Assembly: GCA_020059425.1 (NCBI GenBank) | Contig: JAGVCD010000428.1 | Coordinates: forward strand, 1-9,028 | Length of the DNA stretch: 9,028 bases | DNA from: Chamaesiphon sp. | GTDB lineage: Bacteria; Cyanobacteriota; Cyanobacteriia; Cyanobacteriales; Chamaesiphonaceae | Reading direction: 5' to 3' | In this document: positions 1-8,823 of the stretch, piece by piece | Numbering within the stretch: position 1 is the stretch's first letter | Layout of the letters: each line of letters starts with the position of its first letter | Made by a program: the position numbers and the translations under genes | Notes under the pieces: generated by a model | Databases searched by the model: none | Seen by the model: only the letters and a program-made list of their open reading frames with translations | What the model was told of the DNA's origin: nothing

Positions 1-1620
1 CAAATTGCCGAGGCGATCGACTACTCGATTTCTTCGGTGAAGAGATTTGTGCGGCAAGTGAATCAGAAAATTGAAGGGGCAATTCAGGTGCGATCGCGGC
101 AGGTATGGGTGACGAAATTCTTTGCTTATACGGTCTGGGAATACCGGGTAAATTGGCAAAAAGTGACCAGCTTTTTGACCTCTCAAAAAGCCAGTACAGA
201 CCAACTAGAAACGGCTACGATGGCGGAAAGTTCCCACCTCCATTTTGAGCTAGGGGGGGGGCAAAATGAGCTGGGGGTAGCTCAAAATGAGCTTACATAT
301 AAGAATCAATTTAAAGATCATGTTAAAGAAATTAAGACCTCCCCTACCCCTCCGAAAAAAATCAATGGGCAGAGTGGGGTGAACCCGGAATTGGAATTTA
401 TTTCACCGGAATTAGAAAACGATCTTCAGACTACGGCCACTGGAATACCAGAGCTGATAGAAACAAAATCAGATATTAGTGAGGACAGATCTTCCGCCGC
501 CGCCGAAAAAATGAATATAGCCAGCCGTAGCGCCGCCGCCTTGGGCTTAATCTGTCAAAATAACCCAGATGGTAGTAAGTCTTATGTTCCTAACCCTGCT
601 GGCCAATCTAGAGGCCGATCGGCATGGGTTGACCAAGGAATTGCTTTAGGCTTTTGGGAAAATAAAGAGCAAGCGACCGCGTTTCAAGGTCAAATTGCCC
701 AGTATGCCCGGAATCAAGATTGGTGTCGATCGCCTTTAGACTATGCCAACTCGACTATTAAAGGTTTACTAGCTGGGGATAACCCAAAAGCTGATCGGTA
801 TTGGGAAGCTTGGCGTAACAATCAGCCAATTGGCTGGGAAAATTTATTTGCTTGGGAAATTACTCCAGGTGTGGTAAACACTGCTTTTGCTAATTGGGTA
901 ACAACTCAGTTATTTGACAGCACCAAGTCACCAGCGGCGAATACTGCCGAAGCTGCTAAACAGATTAAATTTAATGCACGGGCATTATGGGAAAGATATC
1001 AGCGGGAAGTGGCTAGAGAGGTGCAAGTAGCCGATGAAGCTCAGCAGCGCGGCCAAGCTTATTTACCACCAGCGGCTTTGCTACCCCGCACTGACCAACC
1101 TACTAATGAACAGACCTATGCAGCGATCGATCGCTTAACCCAGGCGCAAGCAGTTGCTCTACCCGCTACTGGATTACCTCAGCTACCAGCAGTAACAGAG
1201 CCAGAAATTAGCATTGAAGAATATGCAGCTGCCACAGACAAAGCCGACATTATGGAGCGGATGCGCCGGATTGGCGGTTTAGGTGCTTCACGCCAAACTA
1301 GAAGCCCTGAACAACCAGCTTTGAACAAATCTTCAACTCCTGTTGAAATCCGAGCATCGATGACAGTTTTTACAGCTTCTGAACCGCTAGAATCACCCCC
1401 ACCATTACCAGTCAAGCCCTTATCTATGACGCTATTACCAGAGATAATTCATCGCCGGAAAATGCTGGAAACCCAATACCGCAGACAAAAACCGCCTTAT
1501 GATTTGGCAACTGCGGCTAAGTATTTGGTGTGGTCGGAGCAGGGGAATGAAGAAATGAAAATAGAGGCGATTGACTGGTTATCGGTTCATGGAGGAAGCT
1601 TACCGGACAAATCGATTTAA
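1..1620 (+). CDS. Winged-helix replication-initiator-like protein, 5' end missing
   Basis: The frame is open from base 1, so the gene starts outside the window; the GTG at 37 lies inside the DNA-binding domain and is unlikely to be the true start. 539 residues are visible. Residues 2-19 (IAEAIDYSISSVKRFV) look like the turn and recognition helix of a helix-turn-helix, and residues 22-55, ending in WEYRVNWQKV, look like the wing strands seen in phage and plasmid replication proteins. A low-complexity linker follows (about 60-170) with the repeated unit QNEL at 88-91 and 95-98. A second globular-looking part, about 170-345, is rich in Trp and Ala and I do not recognise it; the rest is Pro-rich and probably disordered. 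Domain order resembles replisome organisers of the lambda O or DnaD type (inference), but a plain transcription regulator is possible. The last 21 bp overlap the convergent tape-measure gene. Confidence 0.72.
   Translation, partial: QIAEAIDYSISSVKRFVRQVNQKIEGAIQVRSRQVWVTKFFAYTVWEYRVNWQKVTSFLTSQKASTDQLETATMAESSHLHFELGGGQNELGVAQNELTYKNQFKDHVKEIKTSPTPPKKINGQSGVNPELEFISPELENDLQTTATGIPELIETKSDISEDRSSAAAEKMNIASRSAAALGLICQNNPDGSKSYVPNPAGQSRGRSAWVDQGIALGFWENKEQATAFQGQIAQYARNQDWCRSPLDYANSTIKGLLAGDNPKADRYWEAWRNNQPIGWENLFAWEITPGVVNTAFANWVTTQLFDSTKSPAANTAEAAKQIKFNARALWERYQREVAREVQVADEAQQRGQAYLPPAALLPRTDQPTNEQTYAAIDRLTQAQAVALPATGLPQLPAVTEPEISIEEYAAATDKADIMERMRRIGGLGASRQTRSPEQPALNKSSTPVEIRASMTVFTASEPLESPPPLPVKPLSMTLLPEIIHRRKMLETQYRRQKPPYDLATAAKYLVWSEQGNEEMKIEAIDWLSVHGGSLPDKSI
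241..289. repeat. Perfect 12-bp inverted repeat flanking G runs
   Basis: CATTTTGAGCTA at 241-252 is the exact reverse complement of TAGCTCAAAATG at 278-289. The 25-nt loop between the arms contains a run of nine G (253-261) and a run of five G (273-277). The structure lies within the coding sequence and overlaps the candidate iterons. Confidence 0.75.
241..336. other. Candidate intragenic replication origin: three 21-bp iterons plus AT-rich block
   Basis: GAGCT occurs at 247, 268 and 289, exactly 21 bp apart, about two helical turns. The surrounding bases are related: units two and three share CAAAATGAGCT (262-272 and 283-293), and units one and two are followed by a run of G. The 43 bases from 294 to 336 directly after the array are about 81% A+T. 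Iterons beside an AT-rich unwinding region, placed inside the initiator gene between its DNA-binding and C-terminal parts, is the layout of the lambda origin in gene O (established). That this is an origin is inference. The alternative is a short in-frame protein repeat with no DNA function. Confidence 0.4.
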
Positions 1621-4600
1621 AATACCGCCGTCTCTAATCTCATTGGCAATTACTCCGCGAATAGCTTGGGTAAACTTGGGGCCAAGTTGATCATTAACTG
1701 CTGGCTGCGATTTGCCATCAGATTGTAGATTGACATCGAACTTTCCATTTAGTAACCCGCCTAAGCCGCTGAAATTACCACCAGATAGACTGCTGCTATT
1801 GCCGCCAATAACTCCACCGCGATCGTAATTGAGGATGCCATTAGGAAACTTTTGATGATAAGCCGCTGTCTCTGGCAGATTAAGTATTCGTTCGCCGCGC
1901 TTGCCCACGATTACCGTCGCGCCTTGTCCTTCGCGTCGGATAGCTGCTGCGATCGCCCCATTACCAGCTCCGAAGGCTTCATGACCTTGACCACCAGGAA
2001 TCAGGCCACCATCAGCAAAGCCTAAGATACCGCCGATAAAGTTTACTGCTCCGCCTAGGATGCCAGCATTAGAACCTTTCCCACCACCACCATCAAATAA
2101 TTGGTCAGTAAACTTCTGTGCCAATATTTTGATCATGCCCTGTACGATATTATTGAGGGCACTTTGCCAGATTTCATCAAAGCTTTTGGTTCCGGAAATT
2201 AGCTCGGTTATGAAGCCCTGGACTTCACTACGGGCAAGCTTTTGTAGTGCAGTAGTACTAGCATTAATGGAGTTAGACAGCGTATCAAATTCTTGGGTAA
2301 TGCTGGCTAGATTGATGCTGTGGAGTTTGTCGATCGCCTGACTAGCGCTATCAACTTGTTGCTGGGGAATTTGGGTTCCACCAGCTCTGGTCTTGGCCAC
2401 CTGATAGCTGAAATCGGCCTTTTGTTTGTAGTAGCGTAAATCTTCATTGCCGATCGCAGCGGCTCGACCGGGTACTGCGGCTTCTCTAAATTGGCCTTGA
2501 GCGATTAAATTCTTACTTTGTTGCTGGGCTAAATCTACGCCGGGGCTGTAGAGCAAATCGGTGGTCGATACCTTTTGACGGGCTTCTACAGTTTCGGCTA
2601 AGGCGGCTTTGATTAAGGCTTGGCTGGCTAGTACTTTGAAAGCGGCATTCTTATTGTCATCGGCTTGGGCAATTAGCTTTTCCACATCCCCAATTAACTT
2701 ATTCAAGTCGGGGTCAATGATGCCGATATCACCTAGCGATTGTTGACGCTCCCGCAGAGTGTTTAGACTTTCTTGCAGCTGACCCTTGGTTTTTTCAACT
2801 TCGCTAGTTAATTTAGTCTGGTCGATTTCAAACTGAATTTTGACCTTAGTTGGTTCATCTGGCGCATTCTTTAACTTAGTTTCTAGGGCATCAACCTTTA
2901 CCCGTTGGGTTTCTTTATCTACTAACTGCCGAGACTTCTCGTTCTGAGTGTTAACAGTGCCCTGAAAATCGGTAGCATTAGCGGCTTTGCGTTGCTGATA
3001 ATTACTTTCAGCTGTTTGTTTGCGACCTACTAAAGCAGCCCGTTCTTGATTAAAATCAATGGCTTCTAACTTGGGATTGCTGATTCCGAGCCGTTGATTT
3101 TCCACTAGGCGTTTTTTGTCAGTATTTAGATTGGCCAGAGCATCATTAACTTTAGCTACTTCCTTATCTCGCTTGGCCTTGCCTTTGACATCGCTAATTT
3201 CTTGGTCAACAGCAGCGATCGACACTTTATCAGTGAGGCCAGCTTTGCGGGTTTCTAGGCTAGCTACCTTTTGGCTGGCGTTATTAGTGATGCCCTGGTC
3301 ACGGCGATCGCGGGTAGCATCTAACTGCTGGTCGGTGGTTTTACGTTTGGCCAGGACATCATTCTGAGCCTTTTGCACTTCTAGCACTCGTAACTCGGAT
3401 TTTCGCAATTCCTCATTCTTAGAAATTACCTCTTCAACAGCCTGAATCTGGCCGCTATAGTCCATATTGTCAGAGCCACCGACCGCAATCTTAGACTCGC
3501 GATCGGCCTTTAGTCTTTCGATGGTTTGCTGGCTCTCAATCTTTTTCCTGTCGTATTTGTCATTAATGGCTTGGCGATCGCTTTGGTAGCGTAGATTTCC
3601 TTTGGCTTGACCATCACTGCTTTTAGTTTCAGCTTCCCGTAATTTCCCCCTGTCTAGCTGTTGGTCAGCAGCATCAACTTGGCTTTGAGACTTTTGTCTA
3701 GCGCTGTTGCCTTGCTTGGCTTTCCTTTCATCAGCTGCTCGTTTTTCTAAGGCTTTTTTGACTAAAGGATCTTTTCTTATTTCTCCCAGGTTATAAAACA
3801 GATCACCGGGATTGTAATTAGGCTGAGTGTTTTCTGGTTGCTTTTTAGAGGCTTTTCGTTTGCCTAAGACATCGTTTTGAGCTTTTTGTACTTCTAACAC
3901 CCGCAATTCAGACTTGCGTAGCTCCTCGTTTCTTTGAATCACAGCCTGAATGACATTAATCTGACCCAGATAGTTAGCGCCGTCGTTGCGGTTGTACTTA
4001 ATTTCTTGACCACGCTTGATATCTAGCTTCTCGATCGCCTGGGCATTCTTGGCGTATTTGCCATCAAATTTATTATTGATAGCTTGGCGCTGGGTCTCGT
4101 AATTGAAGTTTCTGGCGATCGGTAACTTACCCGCCCTGGCTTCTTTCTCTTTAACGCTACCTGTTTCTAGCTCTAGGCTGGCGTTAATTAGCTGAGTTTG
4201 CAGCTTCTGCCAGCTGGTGGTTACTTTGTCTTGAGATTTTTGCTCAGTGATTTGCCCTTTCTGGGCAGCTTTGGCCGCTCTTAGCTGCTCTCTTTGCTCC
4301 TTTCGGTCTTGTCTTCCCTGCTCTTTGTATTTTGCTAGTTTTTCGGGGTCAGTTTCTCCCTGATACTGTTGACCCCCTTTACCTTTGCGCGGGTCTGGCT
4401 TGAATCCTCTCTTACTGGCAATCATTACAGGTACTACATCAGTAATGCTTTTGCCAATATCTTTGCCAGCTGCTTGACCAACCGACTCAGCATTAGGTAG
4501 CTTCCAGTTTTGCAATCCTTGATTAGCAGTAGCTTGTAGCCTACTAACTAAGCCCTTGCCAGCTATATCACCGCCTTTTTGTCCGGCTTTGTCCATCTGG

Positions 4601-4653
4601 GATAAGAACTGTCGATCGTCTGCGACCAGAAGGATTGATACGTTGTTGTTCAT
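1600..4653 (-). CDS. Phage tail tape-measure-like protein
   Basis: 1017 residues, ATG start. A tape-measure protein sets tail length and is ejected during DNA injection. Residues about 100-690 are highly charged and Lys, Gln and Glu rich, predicted as long helix or coiled coil. Residues 805-856 (amphipathic helices ending in QLFDGGGG), the Gly-rich hydrophobic segment 863-880, FADGGLIPGG at 879-888 and GERILNLPETA at 920-930 form a C-terminal block very like lambda-type tape measures. Residues 182-267 and 353-438 are an internal duplication. By the usual rule of about 0.15 nm per residue it would span a tail of about 150 nm (inference). No chaperone, tail tube or baseplate gene is nearby, so it may be a remnant, a captured gene, or part of a phage-plasmid that continues outside. 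No Shine-Dalgarno sequence is obvious before the ATG. A large coiled-coil protein of other function is the main alternative. Confidence 0.75.
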   Translation of the reverse strand: MNNNVSILLVADDRQFLSQMDKAGQKGGDIAGKGLVSRLQATANQGLQNWKLPNAESVGQAAGKDIGKSITDVVPVMIASKRGFKPDPRKGKGGQQYQGETDPEKLAKYKEQGRQDRKEQREQLRAAKAAQKGQITEQKSQDKVTTSWQKLQTQLINASLELETGSVKEKEARAGKLPIARNFNYETQRQAINNKFDGKYAKNAQAIEKLDIKRGQEIKYNRNDGANYLGQINVIQAVIQRNEELRKSELRVLEVQKAQNDVLGKRKASKKQPENTQPNYNPGDLFYNLGEIRKDPLVKKALEKRAADERKAKQGNSARQKSQSQVDAADQQLDRGKLREAETKSSDGQAKGNLRYQSDRQAINDKYDRKKIESQQTIERLKADRESKIAVGGSDNMDYSGQIQAVEEVISKNEELRKSELRVLEVQKAQNDVLAKRKTTDQQLDATRDRRDQGITNNASQKVASLETRKAGLTDKVSIAAVDQEISDVKGKAKRDKEVAKVNDALANLNTDKKRLVENQRLGISNPKLEAIDFNQERAALVGRKQTAESNYQQRKAANATDFQGTVNTQNEKSRQLVDKETQRVKVDALETKLKNAPDEPTKVKIQFEIDQTKLTSEVEKTKGQLQESLNTLRERQQSLGDIGIIDPDLNKLIGDVEKLIAQADDNKNAAFKVLASQALIKAALAETVEARQKVSTTDLLYSPGVDLAQQQSKNLIAQGQFREAAVPGRAAAIGNEDLRYYKQKADFSYQVAKTRAGGTQIPQQQVDSASQAIDKLHSINLASITQEFDTLSNSINASTTALQKLARSEVQGFITELISGTKSFDEIWQSALNNIVQGMIKILAQKFTDQLFDGGGGKGSNAGILGGAVNFIGGILGFADGGLIPGGQGHEAFGAGNGAIAAAIRREGQGATVIVGKRGERILNLPETAAYHQKFPNGILNYDRGGVIGGNSSSLSGGNFSGLGGLLNGKFDVNLQSDGKSQPAVNDQLGPKFTQAIRGVIANEIRDGGILNRFVR
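3340..3597 (-). repeat. Internal duplication, copy 2 (residues 353-438 of the tape-measure-like protein)
   Basis: Second copy of the 86-residue segment. Residues 413-434 equal 242-263 of copy 1, yet 15 of the 22 codons differ, all silently. The duplication is therefore old and the protein sequence has been held by selection. Confidence 0.85.
3853..4110 (-). repeat. Internal duplication, copy 1 (residues 182-267 of the tape-measure-like protein)
   Basis: This segment aligns without gaps, at an offset of exactly 171 residues (513 bp), with copy 2. Matching landmarks are RQAINNKFD versus RQAINDKYD, GQINVIQAVI versus GQIQAVEEVI, and a 22-residue stretch (242-263) that is identical in both. Confidence 0.85.
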
Positions 4654-4680: not shown

Positions 4681-4709
4681 ATTAAATTGCAGTTGCATTG
4701 GCTTGTTAA
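4681..4709 (-). promoter_or_regulatory. Possible sigma70-type promoter for the tape-measure-like gene
   Basis: On the minus strand TTAACA (4709-4704) is followed by 17 bp and TTTAAT (4686-4681), about 30 bp before the ATG at 4653. Predicted from sequence only. It overlaps the plus-strand promoter, so the two would compete or be controlled together. Confidence 0.4.
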
Positions 4710-4722
4710 CATGCTTTATAAT
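4693..4722 (+). promoter_or_regulatory. Sigma70-type promoter reading toward 4841-6341
   Basis: TTGCAT (4693-4698), an 18-bp spacer and a consensus TATAAT (4717-4722). The spacer contains GCTTGTTAACATGC (4701-4714), a palindrome apart from one mismatched pair. The 12-mer TAACATGCTTTA (4707-4718) overlaps the -10 box and recurs at 8775-8786 in the other divergent region, suggesting a shared operator. The predicted start is near 4729, giving a leader of about 110 nt. Confidence 0.55.
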
Positions 4723-7656: not shown

Positions 7657-7970
7657 ATATTGTTGGGGTCTTCATCTGTTCGACCTTCTAAATGCATCAG
7701 TCGTCTGTTTAAACGCCGAATTTGACGGGCGCTGTCCTCGCTTTTGCGCTCATTTCTAGCCAGGTCAACATCTAAGTCGTTCACATGTCCCCGAATAAAG
7801 TTGAAACCACCGCGCATGGTTGCTAGCAAGGTACCTTCTACTACTTCGGTACGATTTTCTAGGCTAGTCATTCGATTTTCTAAGCTAGTCATTCGTTCAT
7901 CCAATCTGATGACGACTTGTAAAACCTGGCTTAATTGATTTTCAATCCGTTCTAATCTTTCTTCTGACAT
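7653..7970 (-). CDS. Small coiled-coil protein, second gene of the RHH operon
   Basis: 105 residues, highly charged. Residues 1-46 have a heptad pattern, including a perfect tandem MTSLENR MTSLENR (27-40). A break with Gly (MRGGFNFIRGHVND, 52-65) separates this from a second helix rich in Arg (66-96). No catalytic motif, signal or clear membrane segment. AGGA (7981-7978) lies seven bases before the ATG and overlaps the last codon of the upstream RHH gene, so translation is probably coupled. Position behind an RHH gene recalls antitoxin-toxin or partition-adaptor pairs, but nothing in the sequence identifies a toxin. The stop overlaps the opposite gene by four bases (TTAA). Confidence 0.65.
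   Translation of the reverse strand: MSEERLERIENQLSQVLQVVIRLDERMTSLENRMTSLENRTEVVEGTLLATMRGGFNFIRGHVNDLDVDLARNERKSEDSARQIRRLNRRLMHLEGRTDEDPNNI
7852..7893 (-). repeat. 21-bp tandem duplication in the coiled-coil gene
   Basis: Bases 7852-7872 and 7873-7893 are the same 21-mer with one difference (G or A at position 11). Each encodes the heptad of the MTSLENR repeat. It is recent or gene-converted, in contrast to the old duplication in the tape-measure-like gene. Confidence 0.85.
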
Positions 7971-8753: not shown

Positions 8754-8786
8754 AAAACCTTATGGGATATACGATAACATGCTTTA

Positions 8787-8815
8787 ATTATAGCTTGCAT
8801 TAAACAAGTTAACAA
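8787..8815 (-). promoter_or_regulatory. Promoter of the SWIM-finger gene
   Basis: On the minus strand TTGTTA (8815-8810), a 17-bp spacer and TATAAT (8792-8787). The predicted start is near 8780, with a leader of about 27 nt. The 12-mer TAACATGCTTTA (8775-8786) covers the start site and is identical to that at 4707-4718. Confidence 0.6.
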
Positions 8816-8823
8816 GCTATAAT
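8795..8823 (+). promoter_or_regulatory. Promoter of the right-end HTH gene
   Basis: TTGCAT (8795-8800), a 17-bp spacer and TATAAT (8818-8823). The predicted start is near 8830, about 50 nt before the ATG at 8880. It overlaps the opposite promoter almost completely. Confidence 0.6.

What the first reader, a model, noticed from the sequence alone, without database searches (positions are those of the whole stretch)
241..336. Possible replication origin inside the initiator-like gene
Three GAGCT-containing units sit at exact 21-bp spacing and are followed at once by 43 bases of about 81% A+T. They lie in the linker just after the winged-helix domain. This is the geometry of the lambda origin inside gene O. 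The units are in frame and give the repeat QNEL, so the DNA repeat may have shaped the protein.
Basis: partly seen in the sequence, partly recalled or inferred. Interest (0 to 1): 0.7.

Follow-up and report, generated by a model that had tools for sequence, protein, structure and literature searches.

The report
Cyanophage replication origin inside initiator gene
A virus-like element of photosynthetic bacteria appears to start copying its DNA from a short repeated site buried inside the gene for its own starter protein, using nearly the same DNA signal as viruses and plasmids of quite different bacteria.

Summary
TGAGCT recurs three times at exactly 21 bp, followed by 43 bp of 81-84% A+T. The units are better described as a 13-bp near-palindrome, GCTCAAAATGAGC, at 238, 259 and 280 with 3, 2 and 0 mismatches. 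They lie in a predicted disordered linker behind a predicted winged-helix domain.

A scan of viral contigs for two such 13-mers 19-23 bp apart returned 11 contigs; in 11 of 11 the array lies inside an ORF, behind its N-terminal part. The six viral ORFs scanned, and a plasmid ORF, match replication-initiator or DnaD-like families; the other five are at least 80% identical to scanned ones. Exact cores are read in two frames, in one gene also in the other orientation, and two-mismatch copies in the third frame, so the DNA rather than the peptide is conserved. Window and phage homologue L001 share the gene's longest synonymous-codon run here.

Best reading: an in-gene, lambda/SPP1-type origin bound by its own initiator. 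That is a known kind. What looks new is its place in a cyanophage-like element and the iteron core shared with Bacillota phages and plasmids. Binding and replication are untested.

The parts
1..1620 (+). Initiator-like gene, 5' end cut off by the window (539 aa seen; P0001-P0009 are 523-634 aa)
   Evidence: ORF; homologues; P0006, P0009 and P0003 hit PHROG 345 'replication initiation O-like' at E 3e-4, 0.0026 and 0.11, while the window's own member hits nothing
1..174 (+). Codes for the second half of the predicted winged-helix DNA-binding domain
   Evidence: Alignment to P0003; AlphaFold models of P0003 and of its N-domain alone, pLDDT 79; winged-helix structure matches
238..250 (-). Iteron unit 1, weak, reverse orientation, 3 mismatches to GCTCAAAATGAGC
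   Evidence: in register with units 2 and 3 at 21 bp
259..271 (+). Iteron unit 2, 2 mismatches, its left arm lost in a G run
280..292 (+). Iteron unit 3, exact GCTCAAAATGAGC; with flanks AGCTCA-AAA-TGAGCT
   Evidence: 11 identical codons in a row with L001 across 274-306
293..335 (.). A+T-rich block (84%), candidate DNA unwinding element

Best explanation
The stretch is the replication origin of a temperate siphophage-like element of a cyanobacterium, placed inside the gene of its own initiator. The N-terminal winged helix, probably as a dimer, binds near-palindromic 21-bp-phased iterons (core CTCAAAATGAG) in the linker-coding DNA. Binding on one face of the helix opens the adjacent A+T-rich block, and the C-terminal part recruits host helicase loader or primase. 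Shown by sequence: repeats, spacing, A+T block, homologues, synonymous conservation, the same core in initiator genes elsewhere. Predicted: winged helix and disordered linker. Inferred: binding, melting, helicase recruitment, temperate life, cyanobacterial host.
For: Repeat and A+T statistics. Between window and L001, 140 of 280 identical non-Met/Trp residues use the same codon, but 14 in a row do so across 274-318; 47 of 10,000 permutations reach such a run. The linker block is conserved (52-76% identity) between flanks at 30% and 22% (P0010 left out). In 11 of 11 viral contigs returned for paired cores these lie inside an ORF behind its N-terminal part; six of these ORFs and the Priestia ORF, 7 of 7 scanned, hit initiator or DnaD-like PHROGs at E 6e-4 or better. 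The core occurs nowhere else in L014-L025. Exact cores read AQNE or LKMS (two frames), AHFEQ in the other orientation (L014 only), two-mismatch copies SKRA or SNRA (third frame). Proven in-gene origins: lambda (PMC4488673), SPP1 gene 38 (PMC6316719), TP901-1 and Tuc2009 (PMC8965321), pSK41 rep (PMC5703833); passages read. RepA_N iterons are described as mostly semi-palindromic direct repeats converging on a poly-A tract (PMC7145576, passages), as in unit 3.
Against: Only one exact core in the window and one in L001; the other units are degenerate. Cumulative GC skew of the 42.8-kb contig has no global extreme at the repeats (minimum near 2 kb, maximum near 30 kb, repeats at 26.1 kb). 21-bp tandem repeats also occur in coding DNA where no origin is suspected (window 7852-7895, L001 11471-11518). 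The A+T block is not universal: its best 43-mer within 50 nt reaches the 93rd percentile of the gene in 12 of 17 array genes and fails in 5 of 17, all one protein group; taking a best value favours it. The window protein hits no initiator model itself; members also have weak hits to sigma factors and regulators. blastp links its family to none of the other array genes at 1e-3. DNA of only one homologue could be fetched.
Confidence: 0.87

Rival explanations
1. The repeat is a protein feature: a short peptide motif (AQNEL, then YKDPFKDP) in the disordered linker that binds a partner such as helicase or loader; the DNA repeat is a by-product.
For: The peptide block is conserved across nine homologues in a linker otherwise hardly alignable.
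Against: Synonymous codons are conserved exactly here; elsewhere the same DNA core is read in more than one frame, and once in both orientations, within initiator linkers.
Confidence: 0.06
2. The array is bound by the initiator but serves autoregulation (roadblock of its own transcription) rather than as the origin.
For: In-gene sites could block transcription; nothing here measures replication.
Against: The A+T block follows at once; the mapped cases of this layout that I read of (lambda, SPP1 oriL, TP901-1, pSK41) are origins.
Confidence: 0.05
3. Chance duplication of a heptad-coding stretch with no function.
For: Other 21-bp tandem repeats exist in this window and in L001; units 1 and 2 are degenerate.
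Against: Shuffle statistics, conservation in L001 and copy-number change by one whole unit in P0005 and P0008, and the shared core in initiator genes elsewhere.
Confidence: 0.02

Closest known systems
Phage lambda ori inside gene O
   Same: Initiator gene with iterons in its middle and an A+T-rich block directly 3' of them; iteron 1 holds CTCAAAACGAG against CTCAAAATGAG here
   Different: Four iterons annotated as 18 bp, 20-24 bp apart, only the first with the exact YGAG core; protein unlinked by blastp; host Escherichia
Replisome-organizer origins of Bacillota phages (SPP1 oriL in gene 38; TP901-1 ORF13; Tuc2009)
   Same: Direct repeats inside the cognate initiator gene; SPP1 oriL also has an A+T-rich unwinding element
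   Different: Their iteron letters were not compared here; hosts Bacillota
DnaD-like / O-like initiators with GCTCAAAATGAGC arrays (L014-L028: Priestia, Peribacillus and Paenibacillus plasmids, a Staphylococcus warneri phage, 11 viral contigs)
   Same: Same 13-bp core, mostly 21-25 bp apart or twice that, same place in the gene
   Different: Two to five exact copies per gene against one here; proteins not linked to the window family by blastp at 1e-3
RepA_N plasmid initiators (pSK41 rep)
   Different: No Pfam RepA_N match; fold match tied with TFE and RNA polymerase III winged helices

Membership tests
In-gene (lambda-type) phage replication origin | Repeated, phased sites inside the gene's linker region | tested here: met
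In-gene (lambda-type) phage replication origin | Adjacent A+T-rich block | tested here: met
   window and L001
In-gene (lambda-type) phage replication origin | Gene codes for a winged-helix initiator | tested here: inconclusive
   winged helix predicted; initiator identity rests on weak PHROG 345 hits of 3 of 11 members and fold matches
In-gene (lambda-type) phage replication origin | Initiator binds the repeats; fragment supports replication | not testable with these tools
   needs bench work
RepA_N initiators (PF06970) | Match to the Pfam RepA_N model | tested here: not met
   no PF06970 hit for the window protein or any of 11 members at E up to 1
RepA_N initiators (PF06970) | RepA_N N-domain fold | tested here: inconclusive
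RepA_N initiators (PF06970) | Semi-palindromic iterons around a poly-A tract | tested here: met
   AGCTCA-AAA-TGAGCT in unit 3, not in the degenerate units 1 and 2; description in PMC7145576
PHROG 345, replication initiation O-like | Profile match | tested here: inconclusive
   P0006 3e-4, P0009 0.0026, P0003 0.11; the other 8 of 11 members, window included, none at E up to 1

The most novel reading that the evidence does not exclude
One iteron signal, CTCAAAAYGAG, is a shared recognition site of phage and plasmid winged-helix initiators across bacterial phyla, from lambda O through Bacillota phages and plasmids to a cyanophage, held constant as DNA while the proteins diverge beyond blastp detection and read the site in more than one frame.
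Probability: 0.5. Interest if true: 0.65.

Novelty: new member of a known kind. Interest (0 to 1): 0.52.

Why it matters
It would give an origin and initiator for a group of cyanophage-like siphophages whose replication protein matches no curated model, and a small replicon to test in cyanobacteria. The shared core offers a DNA-based way to find origins in phages and plasmids whose initiators are too diverged for protein searches, and raises the question why the binding site outlasts the protein sequence.

Tried and rejected
GC skew as support: no global extreme at the repeats in the 42.8-kb contig. Peptide-motif reading: held unlikely on synonymous conservation and multi-frame reading. My first idea that lambda iteron 1 is read in another frame than here was wrong: it reads PQNEG in the same frame. 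Cyanobacterial plasmid proteins (L004, L006, L010-L012): P0007 has a weak hit to the L004 protein (E 0.01, 23% identity), and the others were reached from that protein or from the L006 protein. L004, L006 and L010 have linker repeats of other sequence; L011 has one 8-bp inverted pair, L012 only a dinucleotide run; none of the five has the CTCAAAAYGAG core. Seventeen distinct ORFs of the homologous contig besides the initiator (7, 10 with one shared, the tape measure) gave no polymerase or helicase hit; small ORFs were not scanned, so absence is not claimed. PDB sequence searches gave nothing useful. The pattern scan of viral contigs and another returned zero although L001, a viral contig, holds both patterns, so these zeros, and that of the same pattern in genome contigs, count for nothing; may likewise miss contigs. 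The search for related loci found no relative in genome contigs and only the one contig in viral contigs. blastn of window 200-345: the listed hits (20 of 31 phage and 20 of 131 plasmid records) have E 0.01 or more; the top-ranked plasmid row (E 0.4) led to the Priestia gene. Paper string search: 18 papers hold one of three core strings, 17 listed; by title only PMC7466680, on lambdoid O proteins, concerns origins (passages of it seen).

Full report
What is there. The window's first ORF (1-1620, cut at its 5' end) has TGAGCT at 246, 267 and 288, and a 43-bp stretch behind it with 81-84% A+T. No other 6-mer in the window occurs three times at one spacing between 10 and 40 bp; shuffles average 0.05 such triples and 3 of 60 have any. 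The unit is better written as GCTCAAAATGAGC, at 238 (3 mismatches, reverse orientation), 259 (2) and 280 (0): again exactly 21 bp apart. Of 300 shuffles none had the exact core and none had two sites with at most 2 mismatches at 19-25 bp; single sites with 3 mismatches are common, five more lie in the window. Unit 3 with its flanks is AGCTCA-AAA-TGAGCT, a palindrome around an A-tract. Units 2 and 3 read QNEL; unit 1 reads HFEL.

Conservation. The linker is hardly alignable (30% and 22% identity on either side) except for an island holding the repeats and the start of the A+T block (52-76%; P0010, which lacks this part, left out). The distance across it is 17 residues in 7 of 10 rows and 24 in two (one extra 7-residue unit); one row (P0002) escaped the pattern but equals P0001; in P0004 the unit peptides have diverged. 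Between window and L001 half of the identical residues use the same codon (140 of 280), but 14 in a row do so across 274-318; 47 of 10,000 permutations match that run. In L001 the most A+T-rich 43-mer of the gene again follows the last unit.

The core elsewhere. The top-ranked plasmid hit of the stretch, itself not significant (E 0.4), lies in a gene annotated DnaD domain protein on a Priestia megaterium plasmid. There, four copies of GCTCAAAATGAGC, two in each orientation, stand 21 or 42 bp apart. A scan of viral contigs for two copies 19-23 bp apart then returned 11 contigs; by my own arithmetic (26 fixed letters; no call) chance expects practically none. In 11 of 11 the array is inside an ORF of 175-352 aa, near residues 100-190, behind its N-terminal part. 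The ORFs of six contigs, plus Priestia, were scanned: 7 of 7 hit replication-initiation or DnaD-like PHROGs, two of them only at about 1e-4. The five unscanned ones are at least 80% identical to scanned ones. The viral hits amount to about four protein groups, two clearly related (about 40% identity), a third weakly, so they are fewer than eleven independent cases. Peribacillus and Paenibacillus plasmids, whose proteins are related to the Priestia one, and a Staphylococcus warneri phage, whose protein equals that of L017, have it too. CTCAAAAYGAG occurs nowhere else in L014-L025, once in the window and once in G001. Within these linkers exact cores are read as AQNE or LKMS (two frames) and, in Priestia, as AHFEQ in the other orientation; two-mismatch copies are read in the third frame (SKRA, SNRA). 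That is hard to explain except by selection on the DNA.

Known kind. Lambda ori lies in gene O, with iterons and an A+T-rich segment (PMC4488673, passages); measured here, lambda O has iterons at gene nt 349-433 and its most A+T-rich 43-mers start at 434-447. SPP1 oriL lies in gene 38 (PMC6316719, passages), TP901-1 and Tuc2009 origins in their replisome-organizer genes (PMC8965321, passages), the pSK41 origin in rep (PMC5703833, passages). [quoted passage not shown] The layout found here is therefore a new member of a known kind.

What speaks against it. The window has only one exact core. GC skew of G001 gives no global signal. Tandem 21-bp repeats also occur in other coding stretches. The A+T block fails in 5 of 17 array genes, all one group. 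blastp does not link the window family to the other array genes, so shared descent of the recognition is inferred. DNA of further homologues could not be fetched, and two DNA scans missed a contig known to hold their pattern. The cyanobacterial host is inferred from GCGATCGC sites in the sequence (recalled as cyanobacterial HIP1, not counted) and from a weak relative on a cyanobacterial plasmid.

Verdict. An in-gene origin bound by its own winged-helix initiator is the best explanation (0.87). The layout is ordinary for phages. The part worth following is that a 13-bp site matches letter for letter between a cyanophage-like element and Bacillota replicons, and 10 of 11 core letters in lambda iteron 1, while the proteins do not match by blastp. 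In the one string search made, no listed paper other than the lambdoid one concerned origins by title.

Noticed in passing
4706-4720, 8774-8788, 8809-8823: Three copies of a TTAACAWGCTWTAAT-like motif (2, 1 and 0 mismatches) in two intergenic regions, none in G001 at up to 2 mismatches; may be shared operator/promoter sites.
   Followed up: partly
7852-7895: A 21-bp tandem repeat (2.1 copies, 95%) in a small coiled-coil-like ORF; a warning that 21-bp periodicity alone is not an iteron sign.
   Followed up: no
L001 11471-11518: A second 21-bp repeat in the homologous initiator gene, in its C-terminal linker; Tandem Repeats Finder lists none there in the window gene.
   Followed up: partly
253-261: Run of nine G inside iteron unit 2, where the near relative P0011 reads GGVQNEL; looks like slippage or drift.
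   Followed up: no
1-1620 (relatives P0011, P0012): Two partial proteins, both listed with a longest contig of 61,450 bp, correspond to the two ends of this gene, with linker insertions in P0011; possibly a broken or split copy.
   Followed up: no
L004 4861-4923; L006 3463-3498; L010 4336-4401: Cyanobacterial plasmid proteins (PHROG initiator or DnaD-like hits for those of L004 and L006) have other repeats in their linkers; possibly further in-gene origins.
   Followed up: partly
1600-4653: The 1017-aa ORF on the other strand lies in the place of L001's tape-measure gene but has no PHROG hit better than E 0.04 itself.
   Followed up: no
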